Source of the DNA: Heterostelium album PN500
Lineage: Eukaryota > Evosea > Eumycetozoa > Acytosteliales > Acytosteliaceae
NCBI RefSeq assembly: GCF_000004825.1
Contig: NW_008805068.1
Span: 1,364,001-1,428,000, forward strand
Length of the DNA stretch: 64,000 nucleotides
Reading direction: 5' to 3'
Shown here: piece after piece, positions 9,097 to 63,718 of the stretch
Layout: every line of letters begins with the position of its first letter
Position numbering within the stretch: position 1 is the first letter of the stretch
Made by a program: the position numbers and the translations under genes
Notes under the pieces: generated by a model
What the model saw: only the letters and a program-made list of their open reading frames with translations
Databases searched by the model: none
Told to the model about the DNA's origin: nothing

Positions 9097-10544
9097 TTAT
9101 TGGTTTTTTAATTTGTATTCATTTAACTCTTTAACTGTATATTGCTTTGTAAAGTCAACTTTGATTCCATTGCAATATAAACTACCCAATGATTCAAGGA
9201 ATGATATTCTTTCATCTTTTCCAACCTGGAGTGGAGATATTATCGATTCGAACTGATCAATGCATGCCTTGATTTGTTTTGAGTAGACAGGACGTGGTGC
9301 TATCTCCAAGAAAACATGATCATCGAAACTGTCTTTTATATCTCGATGAAGAGAGTTTAGTGCTTGTTCAAATTTCACAGGTCTTCTAAGATTGTCATAA
9401 ACATATTTAGCAGTGAAGCGATCCTTATACACATCACCAGTCACTGTTGAATACCATTGGATCTTTGGTGGTTGAGCGTCGTCCATCGGTGACAATGACG
9501 AGAGTACTTTTGGTTTCAATGCCTTTTGCTTTCTGGAATGAAATGAACCTGGTAATAGCGAGTCGATCGATCCAATATGTTCTTGTTCCAATAGTAATTT
9601 AAGTTGATCTATCACCTCGGGATCACCTGATACAAAGAATAGGCTCGGTGCATTATAACATATGATTTCAACAGTTGGAAATCTCTCTGTGTATTTCTCT
9701 ACGAATAGTTGATGACTCATTCTGACCAACATCATTTTACCAACACTATCGTCATTACTCTTGATAATTGATCGATGATATATTATTTTCACTGATGTTT
9801 CAAGTGAAATACAACCTGCAACATAAGCAGCAGTAATTTCACCAAAGCTATAATTATGAAACACACAACTAAAGTTAGTATTATTCTATTTTATAGTTTA
9901 CAATTGTAAGTGTTAAATCGAACATAAGCAACATACCTTTGAGCAAGTGTAATATCAGCCTCAATACCATAATGACGATAAAGTTCTATTATACCAATGT
10001 GAAACATAAGCAATGCTGGTTGTGCAATTGATTGATCATTAAAGATCTCTTTTCTATCTGAAGGTATATGCTTTATCTTTTCAAAAATACTGAATCCAAT
10101 GAAACGATTGAACGTGTTATCGATTTTGTCCACAATTTGTTTATAGGTAGGTTCAGATTTGTACAACTGATTGCCCATTTCACTAGTCTGATATCCTTGA
10201 CCACTAATAACCATAATCACTTTCATATTCTTTGTTCTTGTATTTGAATCGGTGGCTATTACAGATTTTGTTGACAGTTTTTGAAGAAAATCATCCCAAT
10301 CACATGCTACAATTGCTTTCCTAATTGTACTAGATCTGCTTAGATCCAACAATGATTGTCCAATTGCAAAGTCTTTGAATGATTCATATCGGTTGCTAAA
10401 CTCGATGAAAGACTCTTCTCCAATCTCTGAATCTATTGGAATTAAAAAATATTTACTAAAAAGAGCATGCTTGTATTAATATATATTTAGTTTAAAAAAT
10501 AATTCACAACACAATAGTCTTTTACTTTACTTTTCTGAAATCAT
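9097..10544 (-). CDS. Stand-alone acyltransferase (PKS AT-domain) protein
   Basis: Three exons: 10544-10531 (14 nt, encoding MISE plus two bases), 10455-9937 and 9847-9097; 427 aa. It contains only the linker that follows a ketosynthase and one malonyl/acyl-CoA:ACP acyltransferase domain. The AT begins with VISGQGYQTSEMG (canonical GQGxQ). The serine elbow is AQSFGEITAAY, with the Ser codon split by intron 2, so the usual GHSxG reads AQSFG. YHRS, the catalytic-His segment PGSFHSR, YSTVTG, and a terminal LGSLYCNGIKVDF close the domain. There is no KS, DH, KR or ACP. The mini-exon start matches the paralogue at 37235. It could supply acyl groups in trans, be a non-catalytic relative, or be a remnant of a larger synthase. 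The open frame and retained introns argue against recent decay. Confidence 0.8.
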
Positions 10545-37234: not shown

Positions 37235-38549
37235 ATGATATCGAGTAATAAAAAGTAAAGTATTTGTATTTAAAATAAATATAAAATAACAAATTAATAA
37301 ATTGTTTTTTCTTAATTTCAGATATATTATCCCTTTTGGAGGTTCTTCATTGGATTCAATAAATAGATTAATAGAGAATTTAAAAAATGATAATTCAATG
37401 AATAGTAAACCATTTAAAGAATTTGTAATAGAACAATGTATAAAAACAGATTTAAATAATTCAAAATATAGAAAAATAATAATTGCTCAGGATTGGGAGG
37501 AGTTCCTGGTTCAAAAATATATCGTCGAATCACCTCTAAATGGTACCAATAATTTGAAAAATATTATTTTTTTATTTGGTGCGCAAGGTGATCAGACTCC
37601 AACTATGGGTATGAAGTTATATGATCACTTCAGTGCATATTCATCGACAATCGATAAACTTGATGGATTGTTCAAACAGTATATAGGATACAGTGTCATT
37701 AATAAACTATTGGATATTCCAAAGGGTTCCAAAGAAATATTCGATCAATCTGTAGCGCAACCATCACTTACACTCTATACCATTGGTATGTTTGAGCTCT
37801 ACAAGCATTTCAATATAAATCCATCAATTGTTTTCGGTCTGAGTTTTGGAGAGATTGGATGTATGTACGCAGCAAATTGTCTGTCAATGGAGAATATAGT
37901 TAAACTTGTCTACCATCGTTCAACCATTCAAAGTCTTTCAACGGGGAACGGTTGTATGATACTTATCAGAGAGAAACAAGGCTTATTGGATTCACGATAT
38001 CATACCAATGAATTAGAGGTAGCCGGTAGATTTCCAAGAACTATAGTTTACAATGCAACAAAAGAATCAGCCAATTCTCTTAAGCGAATTTTAGACCAAG
38101 ATGGTGTAAAGAATCATATTATACCGTTGCCAGGTAAATTCCACAGTCGCGCACAGAAACCACTAAAGCCGAAAATCTTGGAATCTCTCAGCCACCTCAA
38201 TTTCGATCGACCATCGATCAAATGGTACTCAACAGTCACCGGTGAGTTGAGCAGCGAAAAGGTAGACGCCAACTATATCTATAAGAACATTAGAAAACCA
38301 TTTCTCTTTGACAGTGCACTCTCATCTATTATTAGAGAGAACCAAATCGATGAATGCGCATTCCTAGTGATATCACCGGGTACCGATTACTCCAATCATA
38401 TCTACTCTGTCCTACAAAATGCAACAATCATCTCAATGTCGAAATCAACCGATGACGAAGTAACATCATTTCTGATGACACTTGGCAAACTATTTTGTAA
38501 TGGATTCAACAACATTAATTTCCTATCACAATTCCCTGAATTTGCTTGA
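37235..38549 (+). CDS. Stand-alone acyltransferase (PKS AT-domain), second copy
   Basis: Exon 1 37235-37254 (20 nt, MISSNK plus two bases) and exon 2 37322-38549, phase 2; 415 aa. It has the same plan as the protein at 9097-10544: mini-exon, post-ketosynthase linker (KYIIPFGGSSLDSINRL), then one acyltransferase domain ending at LGKLFCNGFNNINF. AT motifs are IIFLFGAQGDQTPTMG, QSVAQPSLTLY, the serine elbow GLSFGEIGCMYAA (canonical His replaced by Leu), YHRS, PGKFHSR with the catalytic His, and YSTVTGE. Unlike its paralogue there is no intron inside the serine codon. Ser and His of the catalytic dyad are kept, so activity is possible. No other PKS domains occur nearby, so it would have to act in trans or have a new role. 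Confidence 0.82.
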
Positions 38550-51632: not shown

Positions 51633-51702
51633 ATGATCAAGATATTAGTATTTTTAATTTATCTATCATTTTTATTTATAAACATAGAATGTCGTAAGTT
51701 AT

Positions 51703-51750
<48 letters not shown>

Positions 51751-54707
51751 ATAAACATGCATGATAATGAATTAAATTAATTAAACAAAAAAAAAATAGA
51801 GGTTATAAATACTATACAATATTATGTTGGACATGCAGAAATCAATGGAGATAAACTATTGGCAGCGTCAACTTGGAGAGTTGAACCCTTCTTTAATGGT
51901 AGTTCACAACCGTCGTCCACTATTCTCAGTGTGATATCATCGACCGAAACAAAGGTCGTGGTGTCGTTGAACAACAGTATAGCAGTGCCTGGTCTAATCA
52001 AAGGTTGTGTGCAATCGACATGTGCCACCAACTTTTGGAATCCTGTGGTGATAGCCAACGTATCGAGTGTACCAACCGAAGGTGGTACACTGACGGTGCG
52101 AGGAAACTACCTACAACAAACAAGTACATTGGCACCGAATGTGCTACTCTTTCAAAATCATCAGATTAAGCAGTCCGGTACCAATAGAGATGCCACCGAA
52201 ATCTACTTTCCATTTCCAACGAATATATCACAACTTGATGCCGGTAGAAACGTTAGTGTCGTTGTAAATATTAGAAATACTGGTAATAATGCTATGTTTT
52301 CTTATCAGAGTATGTTAAATTTATGATTATAAACTTTGCAAGGAGAAATCTCTTGTTATTAATATGAATCAATTTAAAAAGAACCTAGTATCGATAATAT
52401 AGCAATAGTTAATAATACAATGTTGATAAATGGTGATAGTTTTGGAGCTGACAAAGATCTAATTAACATAACCATTGAAAATACTGTAACGGCTCATCCT
52501 ACATCGTTAATCAATCATTTTAATATCTCTGTAGATCTGGAATCAAACAATAATATATCAAAACTTTTTAGTAATCCTGGTGTCTATCAATTCGAGATTG
52601 ATGTTAAAAATAATCCTTCAACTGTATATAAATATACATTATGTAAGTTTAGGTTAATAATTACATACAATTTCTATTTATTAATATGTTTTTCTTTTTG
52701 ATTAAAAAATATAGTACCATTATTAGAATCAACATCTAGAGTTGATAGTAATGGTGGTAAAATAACAATAATAGGTAAACATCTTGGTCTGGGGAATATT
52801 AGTTCAAATCAATCTACGATCATTACAATTGGAAACAATATATCATGTTTAAACATTAGCTATCCAACAACAGATGGAATATCAATCATTTGTAGTGTAC
52901 CTCCCAATGGTAATAAATCATTAGTCGATCAACTCTTACCTGTGATCATCAAAACCAATGGATATACATCTATCCCATCACTGATATTCAAATACTCAAA
53001 AGAGATAACAATAGATTCATCTGAAAAACAAACCAATATAACTAAAGGTAAAATACCAACCATTTAAATTTATAAACAATTGTTATTAATTTTATTAATT
53101 TAAATTAATAGATGTATATGTATCAAATAATACAATTATAAACACAAATCATTCGTCGGTAGTTACAAATGTTACTACTACCATACCAATAGTAACAACG
53201 AATACAGGTGAATCAGATGTAAAGTCATCGAGTGGCAGTCAATCTAGTGGAAAGAGTAGTAGACAGATGCTATGGATTATTGCACCTGCTTTGGTTGGAC
53301 TATTGGCAATTGTCGGTGTCATATTGTTCTTTATTTACTATAAACGAAAATTGAATCGTAAACAACAGAAATCAATAGATGAACTCCCTCCAGGTTGGGA
53401 TTCAAAAGAGGATTTGGAGATTGGTGGAATTGTTTTATGCTACGACGAGAAGATCGATGGAAGACGACTCAAAGCTGGTAAATTTGAAACGATGGTTAGA
53501 CATCTATCATTCTCAAAGCTTGCCAACCGTGATGTTATCAAGTGCTTCCTACTGTCCTTTAGAAGCTACGCTTCAAGAATGGAACTTCTAGACCTACTTA
53601 TCGATTGCTATCAATGCAAAAAGAGAAAACAAACAATTCAGCCACTCCCTTCAAACGAAGAGGTTCACATGAGAATAGGCTACATAGCTCAGCAATGGCT
53701 AGAGGAACATCAATATGATTTCACAGACAGCCAGGAACTCTCTGAGAAGATGACGCGTTTCATACAACGTAAATTGAAGCGAGATTGTCCAGAGATTTTC
53801 CATCGTATTTTGGTTCTACTTTCACCTGCTCCCTCTGTAATTGGAACGATGGTACAGCTTCCACACCTGATGGAGGTGGAATCTTCAAAACCTGTGGTTA
53901 CCGTTGAGAATCCCGATATACTCAATCTGGATGCAGCGGAAATAGCGAGACAACTAACATTGCTTGAAGCAAGCAACCATCTCTCTGTGGAGGACAAAGA
54001 GTTCTTCCATTTAGCGCCATCACACGAGCGTATTCTCTATAGAATACCAAAGCTTCTTACGTTGACCTCTCAGTATAATGCAATCTCTAATTGGGTCACA
54101 AGCGAAGTCATGACCAAACGTCAACTCGATAGTCGCATCAAAGTTGTAGAAAAGTTTATTCAGGTCGCCAAGCATCTTAAAGAGATTCACAACTTTAATG
54201 GTTGTTTTGAGATTCTCGATGGACTGAAATATCATTCCGTTCAGTTTTTAGCAAAGACATGGGCAAATGTCGACTCTAATCTCATCAATGACTATCAAGA
54301 ACTTTGTCAGCTATTCACAGAGGAGAATGACTATCTTCCTTATAGAGAGCATTTAAAGAATTTCATTGGTCATCAATGTATACCATTTGGTGTAAGATTA
54401 TCATATTTATACTTTCACAGAGTTGTGCATTAAAACTAACTAAAATAATTTAAAGAAATTAACAAAACTAGATATAGGAAGAAAACTAACTTTAGATCAG
54501 AAACAAGCAATATACTATGGGGACAATAATGTAAAGATGATACACTTTGATTTCTATATGGAGATTTGGAGAATCATTCAGGACTTTAAATGCTTTGACT
54601 GTAACTATCCATATGTTTTAGATATAAACACTCAAAACTATATCAAAAACTATAAATCACTTTCAAAATCTGACTATGATAAACTATCTATTTCTTTGGA
54701 AAAATAA
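51633..54707 (+). CDS. Transmembrane RasGEF with IPT/TIG-like ectodomain
   Basis: Six exons: 51633-51693, 51800-52309, 52382-52642, 52715-53047, 53112-54391 and 54456-54707, all junctions in phase; 898 aa. Signal peptide MIKILVFLIYLSFLFINIEC. The ectodomain (about 21-440) is Asn/Thr/Ser-rich with many N-glycosylation sites and IPT/TIG-like beta units (VVIANVSSVPTEGGTLTVRG; SRVDSNGGKITIIGKHLG). A Ser/Gly stalk precedes one membrane helix (WIIAPALVGLLAIVGVILFF). The cytoplasmic part starts YYKRKLNRKQ, then a RasGEF-N (REM) domain (LKAGKFETMVRHLSFSKL, VIKCFLLSFRSY) and a CDC25 catalytic domain (LDAAEIARQLTLLEASNHLS, RIKVVEKFIQVAKHLKEIHN, FNGCFEILDGLKYHSV, HQCIPFG). It should activate a Ras protein at a membrane. 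The last intron (54392-54455) is inferred from continuation of the CDC25 fold. Confidence 0.88.
51704..51746. repeat. A43 homopolymer in intron 1 of the RasGEF gene
   Basis: 43 consecutive A directly after the donor region of the first intron. Length likely varies or is uncertain in assembly. The splice sites on both sides are intact. Confidence 0.85.
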
Positions 54708-55040
54708 AATATATTTCTTAATTTTTCTTGTAAATTATTTTTTGTTTACTTTGAGTTTTCTGTTTGGCCTCGACATTTCATCTTGGAAATAAAAACCATA
54801 GAGGTAGTGAATTATATATTTATTTCAATAGGGAAGTTGAGCTATTCCACAACACATAGTTTGAGAGTCTCTACTAGAAATTAATTAAAAAGATCCCCAT
54901 TTAAAGTAGAGTTTGTTGGCTTAAAATATTCACAGATTTTTAAAAAAAAAAAATGGTGAAGTCGTTACTTTTCTCACTTGCTTTAATTGATTTTTAACAA
55001 ATTAAAAAATTAAAAAATTTCTATTTCCAACATCTAAAGT
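54708..55040. other. Intergenic, RasGEF 3' flank
   Basis: AT-rich, no gene. Its last 35 bases (AAAATTTCTATTTCCAACAT onward) are a diverged direct repeat of 57510-57540, so they belong to the repeat family that starts here. Confidence 0.5.
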
Positions 55041-55218
55041 CAGGATGGTGTGAAAGCTGGTGATCACCTAGGTGATTCCAGAATATTTTATTTCCTTGTG
55101 AATTCAATCAGATTGCCCGCAGGCTTTTTTACAAATTTATGTCATTTATAGTCTTTAGTTGATGCGGATACTCCTAGGTCGAACTCATGACTAGGAGATC
55201 ACCAGCTTTCACACCATT
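55041..55218. repeat. Small palindromic (MITE-like) element
   Basis: Two 26-bp arms, 55046-55072 (TGGTGTGAAAGCTGGTGATC...) and 55189-55216 in inverted order, with one or two mismatches. Inside lie the palindrome ATCACCTAGGTGAT and a second half-palindrome around CTCCTAG/CTAGGAG. The left arm's sequence is homologous to the head of the tandem units at 57529 onward. Confidence 0.65.
55085..55133. repeat. 49-bp perfect inverted repeat, left arm
   Basis: Exact reverse complement of 57452-57500 (begins ATTTTATTTCCTTGTGAATT). The two arms bracket the second LINE copy and the CACTA-ended copy B. Confidence 0.85.
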
Positions 55219-55600
55219 CAAATAGTATCAAACATCATCACCAACTCACATGTATTCAATGAAGAACTCCAACTTGCATTGATCGATTTAAGAAAAGCTT
55301 TCGACTCAATCGAACACTGGGCCCATCAATGGAAAAGCAATCGACACTTTAGTTAAGAGATCGACCGCCCTCAACTTGAAAGTTATCAAAAGAGTATACT
55401 GGTTTAGAAACACAACATCAAATCTCTTTCATCTCAACGACTTCCTAGGATTCGGATTAACATCACTTGTAGATGCAAACGAATACCTAACACTACACTT
55501 CTTCTATCGTACTATCAACCAAAACAATGTCCTCTTTAACAACTCGTCATTCAGCCTAATACATAAACTTCAAAACATCAAACAGAATCCACAAAATATA

Positions 55601-56992
55601 CACTACGATTGTTTCGTAGTTGTCATGGGCACCACACAAATCAGTGTGTGAAAAAAGTTTTTCACTTTTGAAACGTGCATTTTGATCATAGTAAAAATTT
55701 AAGGTGTGCTAGTGTGGTTATCATTTTTTTACAATTTGTCGAGATTTTTACCACATTAATTTTAAAAATTTATTTTGATGACTCGAACCAAAAAAAAAAA
55801 AAATGATCATTTCAAACAATAGTTATTTAATTTGAGATAGTCAATTAATAATAATATTTAAGATTTAATTTAAGATAGTCAATTAATAGTTATTTATTAT
55901 CGATTTGCAGATTTGATAGCAATATCAAACAATAGTTATTTAATTTGAGATAGTCAACAGTAACAATAACAAAAACAGTAACATTAACAATAACAATAAC
56001 AATAACTTCACTTATAGCAATAACAATATTAATTATAATAATAATAATAATAACAATAATAACAATAATTACTATAACAATAGTTTTTTTAATTTAAATA
56101 ATCCATTTATTAGTTATTTGGAGAGTCAAGATATGGAGATCGAATATCTTTCTCAGCAGATATTGCTACTAAACCAACAAACACTACAAATGCGACCAAC
56201 GAACCAACAACAACAATATCAACATCAACAGCAGCAACAACTCAGATTACAGCAACTACAACCACAGAACAACAACGATCGTTCGAACTTCTGAAATACA
56301 ACAAAGACAAACAACACAAAGAGAGAGAAGAATAATCGATCATCTGATGTTCGCCCATCGTTATTCCAAAATGGACAAAAAAGTCTTTGCTAAATCAAAT
56401 AGTATGTCATTCCAGTGTATATTTAATTGATGTTTAGAATGTGAACTAACAAAAAAAAAAAAATAGATGGTGTCGATATAGCACTTGGTGGGAAGCTACA
56501 ATAACAAACATTGTATAGTATAATCAATAATTCATTTGAAAACAGTATCAAATTCAAACAAGGTGGTGAAAAGATACAAAAGACAAATGAAACTGACATT
56601 GTAGAGATCGATGATGCATTGACGATCTTTTGCAATAGTAGATTCAACTATGAGACATGTCTATGAATGCAATATTGGTATGTTTACATTTAAAAGCTTT
56701 ATCTTCTGAATAAATACTAATATAGTAATTATGATTAACAAAAAAATAAATATTCTCATTTATAATATAGATTATCTATAAAATCGTTGCAAGTGTTCTT
56801 TTTAAAGTTATTTAACATTTTTTTTTCTCATTAAAAAATAAATTGTCGTAACAACTACGAATTTAATGTGTAAAAAAGGGCATAACGAATCCCATTCGTA
56901 GTATGCTTTTTCATACAAATTTTTTTTTTTTTGCATTTATTGAGTTGAATACTATGTAAAAACTTCGTAACAACTACGAAAAAATTGTAGTG
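55601..56992 (+). mobile_element. CACTA-ended DNA transposon, copy B
   Basis: 1392 bp, nearly identical in reverse complement to copy A (47614-48925). The main differences are an extra segment of about 70 bp near 55825-55905 and small indels near 56500. Ends are CACTACGATT... and ...AATTGTAGTG. It interrupts a LINE coding frame, which fixes its boundaries and shows it inserted after the LINE. Near-identity of the copies implies recent duplication or movement. Confidence 0.75.
55944..56294 (+). pseudogene. Q/N-rich coding stretch inside the CACTA-ended element
   Basis: Open frame of 116 codons: Asn-rich lead, then FFNLNNPFISYLESQDMEIE, YLSQQILLLNQQTLQM and a Gln-rich end to DRSNF. A following frame has SEIQQRQTTQRERRIIDHLM and FAHRYSKMDKKVFAKSN, a GTATGT donor, an acceptor AAATAG, and a last block ETDIVEIDDALTIFCNSRFN. 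This looks like an intron-bearing gene, either the element's own or captured from the host. Copy A carries the same sequence. Function unknown. Confidence 0.45.
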
Positions 56993-58930: not shown

Positions 58931-61900
58931 TTATGAAGATTGTGAGTTGAATATATTTAATTGTACAGTTGGATCATCTGTATTGATGTTAGCTTGTGCA
59001 ACACTTATTCTCACTCTTTCTTTAACGATTTTGTGGTTTTTGGTAATAGTTGTTTCAAGTATTTCTTTGATTGTTGATTTGATTAGTTTTGTTGGGATTT
59101 TGAATGATTCAAGTGTTTTGATTAGATTAGATGGAACAGTTCCAATGAGTGTTATTAATGGATTTATCAAAAATACTTTATCGTTGTTTGTGTGATTGGT
59201 ATTTGTGTTGTTTATGATTGTTAATTTGTGATTGGGTGGGATTATATTGTTTAATTTGGTTGTATAAAAGTTTAAGAGTGAGTTTCGGTGTTGATTAGTA
59301 GCAGTGCATCTCAACAAGATGTGGGATGTTGTTTCTGGTTCATTCTTATCGCAGTGTATACAATTAGGAGAGGTAATTTTGGGGTGTTTGATGGTAAAGA
59401 GCGGAGCTCGCCATGGACCGTTGTTGGCAAGTAGTTTCTGTTGGAGGTACTTTGGTATTCTTGGGGAGTCACTAAGCAGTTCGAAGGTGGCTTTACGGTC
59501 AAAGTTCAGTTCGGTTAGCTTTCCTTGGGACGTTGAACGCCAATTGGTAAATCTTTTGTTCTTTTGGATTAGTTTGATGTGGTATTTGATGTTTGGGATG
59601 GCTTCATTTTCAGCGCTGGATAGGGAGAGTGGGAGCCATTGTTCGTTGTGGTAGTTAGTTGGTGGCTGGGAAATGGCACCCTTGGCAAGTCGGTCTGCTA
59701 TGTCATTGCCAGGGTTACCAGAATGTGCGGCAACTTTGGTAAGTTTGGTGTGTAGGTTTAGTTGTTTTCTTTGGTTTATTAGTTTGGTTATTGCAGACAA
59801 AACTGGGAAATATGATTTGTTGAAATGGTTGTATAGGTGGAATTTGTTTGTGGTTGATTTGGTAATGAAATTGATCGATGATTCTGAGTCAGTGATGATT
59901 TCTATGTTGGTGTTGGGTGGTGCGTGTTGTAGTGCGTGAAGGATAGCTTGCAGTTCAGCGTTTTCTATGCCTTGGATTCCGGAGACTCTATTGTTAAACC
60001 AATAGCCGGAGGAAGGGGAGTAGACACCGAAGGCTGCTTTAGCTGGTCTGATTATTATGTTGTGTGTTGATGTTAAGATTTCATTGTTGTTAATTACGGT
60101 TGTATTCTCTTTTTCAATTTGTTTATGGCAGGAGCCATCTGTGTAGATCTTGTGGATTGCTGTAGGAAGGGAAAGGGAGTTAGTAGGTAATTGTAATGTA
60201 GTATGTTGGGTGGTGGAAGGTGGGGTTATTTGGTTGGTAGGTGTGTATGATTTGATTAGGTTGATTTTGATTTTAATGCTATTTTTAATTATTCCTGAAG
60301 AAGCTTGTTCCTTATCGCATAATGTTGTTCTGAAATATCTGAGTTGAGATTTATCGATGTTGTTTAGGTTGAGATCTTCTAGTGCTTTAGGTTTTATTAT
60401 ACTGTATGTGTTGTTGTTGATAATGAATAGTTGTTTTGCGTTGGTGTTTTTGCTTTCATTATTAACTAATTTACTCTTGATTATCGAATTATGTTGAAAG
60501 TAAAAGTCAGGTTGATCGAGTCTGTTAATGGGGTTGATGAGTGGGTGGTTACTGTTGAGTTTAATTCCATATTTTTTGCAGATGGAAAAGAAGAGGAAGT
60601 GGCTAGTTTTCTTGAGCTTCTTGATGGATGTGTCAATGAAGAGGAGGGTTGGATCTGCGTGGATGGACTGGAGTTTTCTCCACAGTGAGAACGTAGATGT
60701 GTTGAGTATAGTGTTTTCCAGATTTAGAAGACGGTAGAAAGAGTGTGCTGTAAGGTATTCATTCGCGTCAGTCATGGAGGTAAGGTTCAGTCCAAACATA
60801 TCAGTAGAAGAATGGAATAGGTTAGATGCAGTGTTGTTGAGCCAGAATTTTCTATGTTTGATGACCTTGCGGTTGAGAATATCGAATTGTTTAAGTGTAG
60901 TTGGAGAGTAGTTGATGATTCCCATTCCATAGGTAATGGCAGGCGAAGTAATAGCGTTAATAGCACGGACATATTGATCAGAGTATAACGTGTTTCTTGC
61001 GAGAGATTCTAAAGTAGGTGTGATCTTGTTTTTGACATGGTTGGTGTGGTTGCTCCATGTTTGTGTTGGTAAGATGTGTACACCAAGATATTTGTAGGTT
61101 TTGCCACTGTGGTATGAAGGAAGTGGAATATCTTTTTGATGTGATTACATTGCTTGGGTTTGTTATTCGTTTGTTGGGTGTTGGTTTTTTTGGTGAGGTT
61201 GGTTTATACATGAAAGCTGATTTCTTGTTGTTGATAAGGAGTCCATGATATGTGAGGAAATCGTTGAGTCTGTTGAGGAGGAGTTGTGCTAAGTTTCTAG
61301 TTGATTCCATTAAGATAATGTCATCAGCTACGGCTAGGTTGTTGATTGGTTTATGTGATCTGAGTATCCTATAACCGCTATTAAGCCTGTTTAGATAGTG
61401 GAGGATAGGATCTATAACAAAGTTCCATAGGGCAGGGGAGAGAGGACAACCTTGTTTGACGCCACGGCCTGTCAATATCCTATTTGTTAAACCAAAAGGT
61501 GTGATAATCTGTATATAACAGTTGGTGTTGATGTTCTTGATGAAGTTGATTGTGTGGATATCGACTCCTTTCCATTCTAGACCTTCGATGATGGACCATA
61601 GTTCTATGGAGTCAAATGCCTTGATAATATCAACGAAGATAAGCCATAGATCTTTATTAAAGATGTTGGCGTCGGTGATGATGTTGTTAATTATGTGCAG
61701 TGGCATTGTGGTTGATCTCTTGTTCCTAAATCCGTACTGTGATTCTGCGAAGTTGAGGTTGGTTGGTTTATTTTCGGTTGTGTGTTGTACTCGGTTGTTG
61801 ATTATGTACATGAATAATTTGTAGGTGTTTGGTAGGAGTGTTATTGCTCTGTAGTTGTCTAGTTCGCATTGGTTTCCATCTTTGAATATGGGATAAACTA

Positions 61901-63700
61901 TACCAAGTTTCCAGTCTGTTGGGATGTCTCCAAGTAGAAGAGAGGAGTTGTAGATGTGTAGGAGTATCTTTAGTGCACTCTCTGGTAATAGCTTTATGAT
62001 CTCGTTTAGAAGGAGGTCGTGACCGGGAGACTTCCTATTGGATGAGTTGGAGACGGCAGAGGTGAGTTCATCTAATGTAATTGGTGATGTAAGTTGTGAA
62101 GTTTCTGGTTGTTGTGGTTTGGTGATATTATTAAACCAGAATTGTTTGGTGGGGTTGTTGGGATCATTGTGTTTGGGGGTGAATAGTTTCCGATAGTATT
62201 CTTCGGTTGCACGAATGACGTCTTCCACTTCACTATGTGTTGTTGTTTCACCAAATTCGTTAGTTGATTTAACGACGTGGGTTTGATGTTGGATTTGGTG
62301 AATGTTGCTTTAGCTGCTTTGAAAAACTTGTGTGAGTTGTCGTATTTAATGTTGTCTAGTTTCTCTTTCCATTTCTTGAGGAAGAATCTGTATTGTTGCT
62401 TTTTCAGTTTCAAGAATTGGTAATCTAGAAGTTTTAAAGAAGTGCGAAGGGAGTTTAGTAGTTCTGTAGGATCGTCAGAGTTGAAGTCTGGATCAAAAGA
62501 GTTGTATTTTGTTTTCAACTTGGTTGGTATTCGTTTGTGAAGAATTAATTTCCTTTCGATTGTTTTGATTAAGATGTTGAGTTGGATTCTTTGCTTGTTG
62601 ACGTGTTGTTTTTGTTTGTCGATCTCTGGATCATGTCTTTTGTTAAGACGAGGTGTTGAAGAGTGGGAGGAGATGTTATGTGTTTTCCAGTTTAACATTC
62701 TTTTTGAGGTGTCGACAATGGTATTTGTGAATTGTTTGTTAATGTTTGAGAGAGTGGAGAGGTTTGTGATTGGTGTATTAAGAATGTTTAACCAATATGG
62801 TTTTCTAAATTCATTTCCCATACTTTCGGTGAAATTCGCCAGAGTTTCTGGTTCATTTTTACCAAGTTTGGATCTTGTAATAAAGTAATTATTATTATTT
62901 TGTGTTGGTTTAGTGTGAATGTTTGGGAAATTAATCTTATCAAGTTTAATTGTGAGAAATGTGGCGAGATGATCGGATTTAATTTTTGAGTTTTTAGGTT
63001 TAGAAATATTAAATTGAAAATTTGTGTTTGTGTTAGGTGTGGAGATAAAATATCCATCAAGACGTGAGAATGATAAACCGTGTGGTCCGTTCTGTGTTCT
63101 TGTGAAATCATTGCTATAACAGGTGTCATGTAAACTAAAAGAGTTGATAAATTTAGCGAATGGGTTATCATTTTTAAATGTGTTTAGTTCATTTAAGTTG
63201 TAGTTGAAATCTCCTGATAGAATAATTAGAGATTGGTTGGGTAGGTTGAATGATTTTAGAGTTGTTGCGAGTTCATTCCAATAATCAAGTTTTTCTCGGT
63301 TATTGGAGGGTGCGTATGAGTTTATGTGTGTGATTGTTTGTTTGTTTATGGTAAATGAGATGATTATGGTGCGTGCATTATTAGATATATATTGTTTTGT
63401 TATATGTGAATAAATCTTTTTATGTACGATTGTTGTAACTCCATACTTTGGCAACTTTGTTTGATTAGGTTTCAATTTGTTAACATTGGTTAGCAATGAG
63501 AGTTCGAGTGATGAGTGTAACGCAATATGCGTTGGTGGTATGTGTTTGTTGAATTGTGTGTGTTGCGTATTAAGCAGATGTGTTTCTTGTAAGGAGATGA
63601 TGTGTTGATTATATGTTTGTACGATGGTACTGATTTTGTGTGACCAATCGCCTTGTATGTTGTGCGAAGACAGGTAGAGATTGGTGTGTGGGGTCTCCAT
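58931..63700 (-). pseudogene. LINE ORF2 polyprotein, two frameshifts
   Basis: About 1590 codons in three frames. The apurinic-type endonuclease starts at 63700: LYLSSHNIQGDWSHKIST, QETHLLN, ILSGDFNYNL, FSRLDGYFIS and the terminal KSDHLATFLT. Reverse transcriptase lies about 62000-61150: SPGHDLLLNEIIKLLPES, YRAITLLPNTYKLFMYIIN, SQYGFRNKRSTT, VDIIKAFDSIELW, GVKQGCPLSPALWNFV and LAVADDIILM (ADD in place of the usual F/YADD). RNase H lies about 60150-59700: IYTDGSCHK, NAELQAILHAL, ITDSESSINFI and AAHSGNPGNDIADRLAKGAI. A C-terminal CxxC-H-C knuckle (NCIHCDKNEPETTSHILLRC) follows. Frame changes fall near 62280 and near 61140; all catalytic motifs remain readable. Confidence 0.88.
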
Positions 63701-63718
63701 TATAATAGTTGGTTATAC

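What the first reader, a model, noticed from the sequence alone, without database searches (positions are those of the whole stretch)
51633..54707. Receptor-like RasGEF: signal peptide, IPT/TIG ectodomain, one TM helix, REM plus CDC25
RasGEFs are normally cytosolic and recruited to membranes. Here the exchange factor is itself a type I membrane protein with a glycosylated ectodomain of the kind used for cell-cell recognition in dictyostelids. That would link an outside signal directly to Ras activation. All exon phases across the TM segment agree, so it is one gene rather than two fused by annotation.
Basis: partly seen in the sequence, partly recalled or inferred. Interest (0 to 1): 0.78.

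Follow-up and report, generated by a model that had tools for sequence, protein, structure and literature searches.

The report
Membrane receptor with a RasGEF tail
In a social amoeba, one gene joins a glycosylated outer domain of the cell-recognition type to an inner domain of the kind that switches on Ras, and a second species has the same fusion, which suggests a short path from cell contact to Ras, although the switching part has lost residues that its relatives mostly keep.

Summary
Six exons at 51633-54707 (+) encode 898 residues: signal peptide, sequon-rich ectodomain, one transmembrane helix, REM and CDC25. The genome is Heterostelium album PN500; the deposited model PPL_07125 shares the middle but lacks the signal peptide and has a wrong C-terminus. 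An Acytostelium subglobosum orthologue has the same domain order, with IPT/TIG above Pfam's cut-off. A second, shorter receptor-type RasGEF lies elsewhere in this genome. The three form one clade, 100/99. The ectodomain is of the Tiger (Tgr) kind: relatives elsewhere in the genome pair with TgrO1-type domains, and two that I read share the phase-1 exon cuts and show no GEF in the stretch seen. I found no report of a Tiger-type receptor with a RasGEF tail in the papers searched. Direct Ras activation from outside is plausible, not shown: in all three members the catalytic hairpin lacks the acidic residue at SOS1 position 942, which 21 of 26 other H. album RasGEF loci keep as aligned. The tail may be a GEF of altered specificity, a weak one or a non-catalytic one. 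Verdict: new variant of a known kind.

The parts
51633..51693 (+). exon 1: signal peptide MIKILVFLIYLSFLFINIEC, phase-1 donor
   Evidence: hydropathy 2.1. The C32 gene with a related ectodomain shows a short signal-peptide exon with a phase-1 donor too, read by eye. The weakest exon of the model: GC 0.164, like the introns at 0.156, and the deposited model uses another first exon.
51800..52050 (+). exon 2, first part: N-terminal ectodomain module D1 (aa 21-104), Cys90/Cys95
   Evidence: no Pfam match; related sequence elsewhere in the same genome.
52051..52309 (+). exon 2, second part: TIG-like domain 1 (aa 105-190)
   Evidence: Ig_TgrO1 E=0.0033 and TIG E=0.037, both below cut-off; VPTEGG and YLQQ shared with the orthologue.
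52382..52642 (+). exon 3: TIG-like domain 2 (aa 191-277), one domain in one phase 1-1 exon
   Evidence: same exon cut in the C32 and C14 ectodomain genes by eye. No TIG match of its own.
52715..53047 (+). exon 4: TIG-like domain 3 (aa 278 to about 380) with Cys322/Cys337, phase 1-1 exon
   Evidence: Ig_TgrO1 E=9.9e-5, below cut-off; the matching part of the orthologue is its best TIG stretch, 265-358.
53112..53266 (+). exon 5, first part: sequon- and Ser/Thr-rich extracellular stalk
   Evidence: sequons at 394, 401, 408.
53267..53338 (+). transmembrane helix MLWIIAPALVGLLAIVGVILFFIY (aa 441-464), followed by YKRKLNRK
   Evidence: Hydropathy 2.86. The orthologue (IWWIIVPVVGG...) and the paralogue C6 (KLWIIAPILCL...) have the same WII.P start.
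53468..53761 (+). REM / RasGEF_N domain (aa 508-605)
   Evidence: PF00618 E=3.4e-14, 53.4 bits against a cut-off of 28.3.
53939..54391 (+). CDC25 / RasGEF catalytic domain, part in exon 5 (aa 665-815)
   Evidence: PF00617 E=1.1e-35; SOS1 E=6e-22 by sequence; Foldseek of the orthologue's model, SOS1 E=8.5e-18.
54392..54455 (+). intron 5 (phase 0), at the site where related RasGEF genes have an intron just before the catalytic hairpin
   Evidence: PFG|K here, PYL|G in C17:707291 as read from the translations, PIF|S in C6 by eye; profile breaks at nearly the same position in five further loci.
54456..54707 (+). exon 6: deviant catalytic hairpin (KLTKLDIGRKLTLDQ...) and C-terminal helices; stop TAA
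   Evidence: Matches the orthologue KLFKLDVGRMFTIENKQ...INFDFFMDIWR...NTINYIKNYK. The deposited model replaces it with sequence encoded downstream.

Best explanation
It is one gene for a single-pass, Tiger-type receptor: signal peptide, D1 plus three TIG-like modules, glycosylated stalk and TM helix, with a REM-CDC25 module as its cytoplasmic tail. The gene arose by fusing a Tiger-type ectodomain and TM to the catalytic half of a RasGEF. Most likely the ectodomain binds a partner on another cell or surface, the receptors cluster, and the tail, already at the membrane, changes the nucleotide state of a Ras-family GTPase nearby. Shown by sequence: the gene, the topology signals, both homologies, the orthologue, the paralogue, and one clade. 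Inferred: ligand, clustering, GTPase target and catalysis. The altered hairpin makes the exchange step itself the least certain link.
For: Gene model and topology. Domains. Orthologue with the same order of domains. Paralogue C6 with signal peptide, short ectodomain, TM, REM and CDC25. One clade of the three, 100/99, and 99/98 with the hairpin columns left out. Ectodomain relatives, six of them about 1 kb upstream of an Ig_TgrO1 match on the same strand. No RasGEF match on contigs C5 or C32. Phase-1 exon cuts in two such genes, by eye. SOS1 Phe929 kept as Phe814.
Against: The acidic residue at SOS1 942 and the run after it are lost in all three members. Two of the three Tyr64-pocket residues differ (I825 to T, L872 to F), though other H. 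album loci vary there as well (T in 3 of 26, F in 3 of 26). No transcript, protein or localisation data were reachable. The orthologue's deposited model lacks a signal peptide, and its sequons are less one-sided (6 before the TM, 2 after). The exon-joined C32 relative itself gave no TIG or Tgr match in Pfam, and 4 of the 6 Ig_TgrO1 matches beside relatives are below cut-off. No ligand is known. The fold model is weak (mean pLDDT 51.6, hairpin under 50).
Confidence: 0.5

Rival explanations
1. Receptor with a non-catalytic (pseudo-GEF) tail: the CDC25 fold holds a Ras-family GTPase or a partner at contact sites without opening its nucleotide pocket, so it acts as tether, decoy or antagonist.
For: The hairpin departs from the family in all three members, and the two orthologues share the change; long stem branch of the clade, 0.88 and 0.79 changes per column.
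Against: Phe929 equivalent and Asp at 936 kept; the TM-GEF part is better conserved between species than the ectodomain (44% against 31% identity). According to a paper's review of mutants (PMC8623491, section 4 read), alanine at SOS Arg826 or Thr935 has little effect, so changes at polar positions need not kill exchange.
Confidence: 0.27
2. Constitutive membrane-anchored GEF: the ectodomain only sorts or places the protein (adhesion zones), and no outside signal controls the tail.
For: Recruitment to the membrane, which brings a RasGEF near Ras, is described as a main control step (PMC1273635, passages); the paralogue C6 has only about 110 residues of ectodomain and no Pfam match there above cut-off.
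Against: The ectodomain is of the Tiger kind, whose characterised members TgrB1 and TgrC1 bind partner cells (PMC12324515 and PMC3188802, passages), and it is kept between two species.
Confidence: 0.15
3. Annotation artefact: an adhesin gene and a RasGEF gene placed side by side and joined by the model.
For: The deposited model is wrong at both ends and joined to downstream sequence, so joining errors do occur at this locus.
Against: Stalk, TM, REM and CDC25 share one intronless frame (53112-54391); TM and REM share a 493-codon frame in C6; a deposited model in another species has the same order.
Confidence: 0.04

Closest known systems
Tiger (Tgr) proteins of dictyostelids, such as TgrB1 and TgrC1 of D. 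discoideum
   Same: Signal peptide, TIG/Ig-like ectodomain, single TM; ectodomain homologous to genes of the same genome, six of which lie about 1 kb from an Ig_TgrO1 match.
   Different: The tail is a REM-CDC25 module. The two related ectodomain genes read here end in a hydrophobic C-terminus (C32) or in a TM with a tail that runs off the locus (C14).
Dictyostelium RasGEFs (25 described in D. discoideum; 28 RasGEF loci here in H. album by my grouping)
   Same: REM plus CDC25; same intron site before the hairpin as C17:707291.
   Different: Signal peptide, ectodomain and TM; hairpin without an acidic residue at 942. The D. discoideum survey describes no TIG or receptor form in the sections read (7, 10, legends); its Figure 1, not held, marks predicted TM segments.
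D. discoideum receptor kinase rk3 (DRK family)
   Same: TIG ectodomain, one TM, catalytic cytoplasmic domain (PMC1420674, passage).
   Different: Kinase instead of a RasGEF.
SOS1 (human)
   Same: REM-CDC25 module; residues 508-873 align, E=6e-22.
   Different: SOS1 is recruited to receptors by adaptors; here receptor and exchange module are one chain. Hairpin residues differ.

Membership tests
RasGEF (REM-CDC25) proteins | RasGEF (PF00617) and RasGEF_N (PF00618) above curated cut-offs | tested here: met
   123.6 and 53.4 bits against 23.1 and 28.3.
RasGEF (REM-CDC25) proteins | Catalytic hairpin run P(F/Y)(L/F)G.YLT(D/N)L..., acidic at 942, GN (as seen) | tested here: not met
   PFGKLTKLDIGRKLTLDQ here, PFGKLFKLDVGRMFTIENK in the orthologue. 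Claim lowered from 'active RasGEF' to 'RasGEF-fold tail'. Some other H. album loci also vary from the run (5 of 26 not acidic at 942 as aligned).
RasGEF (REM-CDC25) proteins | Nucleotide exchange on a Ras-family GTPase | not testable with these tools
   Needs a biochemical assay.
Tiger (Tgr) family | IPT/TIG or Ig_TgrO1 domains in the ectodomain | tested here: inconclusive
   Below cut-off in this protein, above in the orthologue. Homology to six places on contig C5 that pair with Ig_TgrO1, best E=1.4e-11; 2 of those 6 Ig_TgrO1 matches reach the cut-off.
Tiger (Tgr) family | Signal peptide and single TM helix, type I | tested here: met
   Hydropathy and sequon asymmetry; no dedicated predictor was at hand, and exon 1 rests on sequence alone.
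Tiger (Tgr) family | Role in cell-cell adhesion or allorecognition | not testable with these tools
   No functional data.
Receptor-type RasGEF clade (proposed here) | Signal peptide, ectodomain, one TM, REM, CDC25 with deviant hairpin; one clade | tested here: met
   3 members: this gene, P0006, C6:347-2463. P0006's signal peptide is missing from its deposited model.

The most novel reading that the evidence does not exclude
A new receptor class in Acytosteliales dictyostelids: allorecognition-type (Tiger) ectodomains wired in one chain to a Ras exchange module, so that a neighbour's surface protein sets Ras activity directly, with no adaptor, kinase or heterotrimeric G protein between. The shared change in the catalytic hairpin would then reflect a different GTPase partner rather than loss of function.
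Probability: 0.35. Interest if true: 0.85.

Novelty: new variant of a known kind. Interest (0 to 1): 0.62.

Why it matters
Dictyostelids have many Ras proteins and RasGEFs but no receptor tyrosine kinases; the 2005 survey of D. discoideum RasGEFs says that few carry signalling domains and that no binding or signalling partners were then known (PMC1273635, sections 7 and 10, read). Some partners have been found since, such as the Sca1 complex with Aimless and GefH (PMC12821622, passage). A receptor that carries the exchange module in its own tail would be the shortest such link, and it can be tested in species that are grown and developed in the laboratory. It would also show cell recognition and Ras control joined by gene fusion. 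If the tail proves non-catalytic, it would be a receptor pseudo-GEF, a kind I know no example of (recalled, not searched beyond).

Tried and rejected
Separate ectodomain and GEF genes: rejected, by the one-exon argument and the orthologue.

Reading intron 5 as coding: unspliced it gives IPFGVRLSYLYFHRVVH and a stop, which resembles the canonical hairpin (PFLGVYLTDLTF). Rejected because, among the donors listed, the only in-frame way to keep that piece and still reach exon 6's frame needs an intron of 31 or 34 nt; because the orthologue continues PFGKL.KLD.GR; and because C17:707291 has a phase-0 intron at the same site. The likeness was not tested statistically.

Structure: the P0001 model (2 rows) failed, mean pLDDT 30.6. 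The P0006 model (8 rows, mean pLDDT 51.6, pTM 0.40) is usable for REM and the CDC25 core only. The ectodomain fold was not settled.

Other dictyostelids: three protein searches gave the A. subglobosum orthologue as the only other dictyostelid protein named in their lists. They returned no D. discoideum RasGEF either, and one search missed even this orthologue, so absence elsewhere is not shown.

Sister group: C17:707291 is sister with hairpin columns in (98/95) but unresolved with them out. In one search its own hairpin exon was not in the row, while C6's was added by hand.

Prior report: paper searches gave none, judged by titles and abstract starts of the rows listed (25 of 45, 6 of 7, 0 of 0, 12 of 12, 15 of 82, 15 of 81, 15 of 25). 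Open-licence papers only. One search (12 of 18 rows listed) gave nothing on pseudo-RasGEFs.

TM survey: the script looked at frames of 60 codons or more reaching to within 2.5 kb upstream of the first REM or CDC25 block. 14 of 28 loci had about 5.3 to 6.2 kb of upstream sequence, the other 14 (this gene and C6 included) 0.7 to 1.8 kb; C10:1341215 was later extended. TM-like hits at C4:287697, C3:1596061 (a poly-isoleucine run in the REM frame, taken for intron read-through) and C14:893364 were dismissed from their 19-residue strings alone; those at C38:345003, C17:551132 and C2:1209792 after reading their frames. Pfam gave no ion-channel match for the C10:1341215 upstream frames.

Full report
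What is there. The window lies in the genome of Heterostelium album (Polysphondylium pallidum) PN500: its protein matches deposited PPL_07125 at 99% identity over 90% of the query. On the plus strand, exons 51633-51693, 51800-52309, 52382-52642, 52715-53047, 53112-54391 and 54456-54707 join to an 898-residue protein with one terminal stop. It has a hydrophobic N-terminus typical of a signal peptide, a 420-residue ectodomain, a TM helix at 441-464, REM at 508-605 and CDC25 at 665-829 by Pfam. It has 18 sequons before the TM and none after; shuffled ectodomains average 10.2, p=0.005. That fits an outside ectodomain and an inside tail. Net charge beside the helix does not discriminate (+3 and +4), and the orthologue is less one-sided, with 6 sequons before and 2 after.

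The gene model against the deposited one. PPL_07125 (P0001) agrees from VINTIQ to IPFG, but begins with another first exon that skips the signal peptide, and after IPFG it runs into sequence encoded from 55292 on, which resembles part of the retrotransposon-like frames at 58931-63712 by eye. The A. subglobosum orthologue settles the C-terminus in favour of exon 6: PFGKLFKLDVGR...INFDFFMDIWR...NTINYIKNYK against PFGKLTKLDIGR...IHFDFYMEIWR...NTQNYIKNYK. The exon 5-6 intron sits at the site used by C17:707291, where the exon ends PYL and the next begins GVYLTDL, and the profile breaks at nearly the same position in five further loci. Exon 1 is the weakest part: GC 0.164, like the introns. The C32 gene with a related ectodomain shows, by eye, a short signal-peptide exon with a phase-1 donor, as here. 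The orthologue's deposited start lacks a signal peptide, as PPL_07125 does.

One gene, not two. Stalk, TM, REM and CDC25 up to the hairpin share one frame of 444 codons without an intron; the chance of staying open over the 426 codons of exon 5 is about 2e-13 at its composition. In the paralogue C6, TM and REM likewise share a 493-codon frame.

The ectodomain. Its pieces match Ig_TgrO1 and TIG below cut-off; the first module and the second TIG-like one match neither. The orthologue passes for TIG (E=2.2e-11). A search of the own genome with the ectodomain gave 37 matches at E up to 0.001. Three are this gene's own exons, the best other is on C3 (E=6.4e-16, not read further), and 11 are on contig C5. 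Six C5 places have an Ig_TgrO1 match about 1 kb downstream on the same strand, best ectodomain E among them 1.4e-11; Ig_TgrO1 has 14 matches in all, and 2 of these 6 reach its cut-off. Two relatives were read: C32 (D1 and three TIG-like modules, then a hydrophobic C-terminus) and C14 (several such modules, then a TM and a tail that runs off the locus). In C32 the introns after the signal peptide and between modules, and in C14 the two introns that I read, are phase 1 by eye, as here. The exon-joined C32 protein itself had no TIG or Tgr match in Pfam, so its membership rests on likeness to this ectodomain. There is no RasGEF match on C5 or C32, and the nearest one on C14 (105600) lies some 18 kb upstream of that gene. 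Phase-1 exons that hold one domain each, here exons 3 and 4, are a usual mark of exon shuffling (general knowledge). A published table gives 110 IPT/TIG proteins in this species and 55 in D. discoideum (PMC4931340, passage).

Relatives with the same architecture. Three protein searches returned one orthologue, P0006 of A. subglobosum: 46% identity over 93% of the GEF region searched, 31% in the ectodomain, with TIG, TM, REM and CDC25 in the same order. The own genome has 39 RasGEF exon matches, which I grouped by position into 28 loci. One, with open frames at C6:347-2463, is a second receptor-type gene: signal peptide, about 110 residues of ectodomain with stalk, TM (KLWIIAPILCL...), REM (E=7.8e-11) and CDC25 (E=6.1e-25). 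Its ectodomain had no Pfam match above cut-off. In a tree of 29 rows (30 less one short row) the three receptor-type proteins form one clade, 100/99; with the hairpin columns removed and two short rows dropped (28 rows), 99/98. The bootstrap had not settled, and C6 is on a long branch.

TM survey. Among the 28 loci, this gene and C6 are the two with a convincing TM segment in the same frame as REM. The other string in a REM frame, at C3:1596061, is a poly-isoleucine run that I take for intron read-through. C10:1341215 has hydrophobic segments in frames upstream, about five by eye, so it may be a polytopic membrane RasGEF; Pfam gave no match above cut-off for them. The survey used unequal amounts of upstream sequence, as told under Tried and rejected.

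The catalytic tail. By sequence and fold the tail is a SOS-like REM-CDC25 module (SOS1 E=6e-22; Foldseek with the orthologue's model, SOS1 E=8.5e-18 at rmsd 9.3). The hairpin that opens Ras differs. SOS1 reads PFFGIYLTNILKTEEGN. This gene reads PFGKLTKLDIGRKLTLD, the orthologue PFGKLFKLDVGRMFTIE, and C6 PIF then SIILIDFTNIIQSS. As aligned, 21 of 26 other H. album loci have Glu or Asp at SOS1 942. One of the five exceptions, C17:707291, lacked its hairpin exon in that alignment and reads IEDG in the next exon, which makes it 22 of 26. None of the three receptor-type proteins is acidic there, under the gapped alignment or under the ungapped reading from the intron. SOS1 N879 is Lys in both orthologues; in the others it is Asn in 11 of 26 and varies. 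Phe929, whose change to Ala costs more than 50-fold in Ras binding (PMC8623491, section 4 read), is kept as Phe814. The same section says that Ala at Arg826 or Thr935 has little effect and that Ala at Lys939 reduces binding; tables seen as passages list contacts of Glu942 with Ras Ser17 and Ala18 and of Asn944 with Tyr32 in simulations. So the change may weaken exchange, alter the partner GTPase or abolish catalysis; sequence cannot tell.

How it most likely works. Ectodomain engagement, by analogy with TgrB1 and TgrC1 and their TIG domains (PMC12324515, passage), would cluster receptors at contacts, where the tail meets membrane-bound Ras. This is inference. A known precedent for a TIG ectodomain with a catalytic tail is the receptor kinase rk3 of D. 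discoideum (PMC1420674, passage). For the inside half, the D. discoideum survey describes no receptor form in the parts seen, but its Figure 1, whose legend mentions predicted TM segments, is not held.

Judgement. Architecture: about 0.9 likely to be as described. Outside-to-Ras signalling by exchange: about 0.5. The modules are known; for the combination I found no report in the open papers searched. Hence a new variant of a known kind, supported by two species and two paralogues.

Noticed in passing
G000:C6:347-2463 (+), locus L033: Second receptor-type RasGEF of the same genome, near a contig end: signal peptide, one short glycosylated ectodomain, TM, REM, CDC25, deviant hairpin exon.
   Followed up: yes
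G000:C10:1338298-1341754 (+), loci L057 and L003: Possible polytopic membrane RasGEF: about five hydrophobic segments by eye in frames upstream of REM; an arginine-bearing segment recalls a voltage sensor (impression only, no Pfam match above cut-off).
   Followed up: partly
window 55292-56294 and PPL_07125: The deposited protein's C-terminus is joined to sequence encoded at 55292-55651 and beyond; the first part resembles the retrotransposon-like frames at 58931-63712 by eye. An annotation error.
   Followed up: partly
window 58931-63712 (-): Non-LTR-retrotransposon-like frames (endonuclease-, reverse-transcriptase- and RNase-H-like by eye), partly overlapping and in different frames. Described only.
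   Followed up: no
window about 55040-55221: Inverted repeat by eye: GGTGTGAAAGCTGGTGATC ... GATCACCAGCTTTCACACC, just downstream of the gene.
   Followed up: no
window 9097-10475 (-) and 37290-38549 (+): Two stretches that look like polyketide-synthase acyltransferase parts, similar to each other by eye.
   Followed up: no
window 54392-54433: Unspliced, intron 5 would read GVRLSYLYF after PFG, close to the canonical hairpin GVYLTDLTF; perhaps chance after a GGT|GTAAGA donor, but unexplained.
   Followed up: partly
G000:C5:344468-869540: Several Tgr-like matches spread along one contig; a possible cluster of recognition genes of this species.
   Followed up: no
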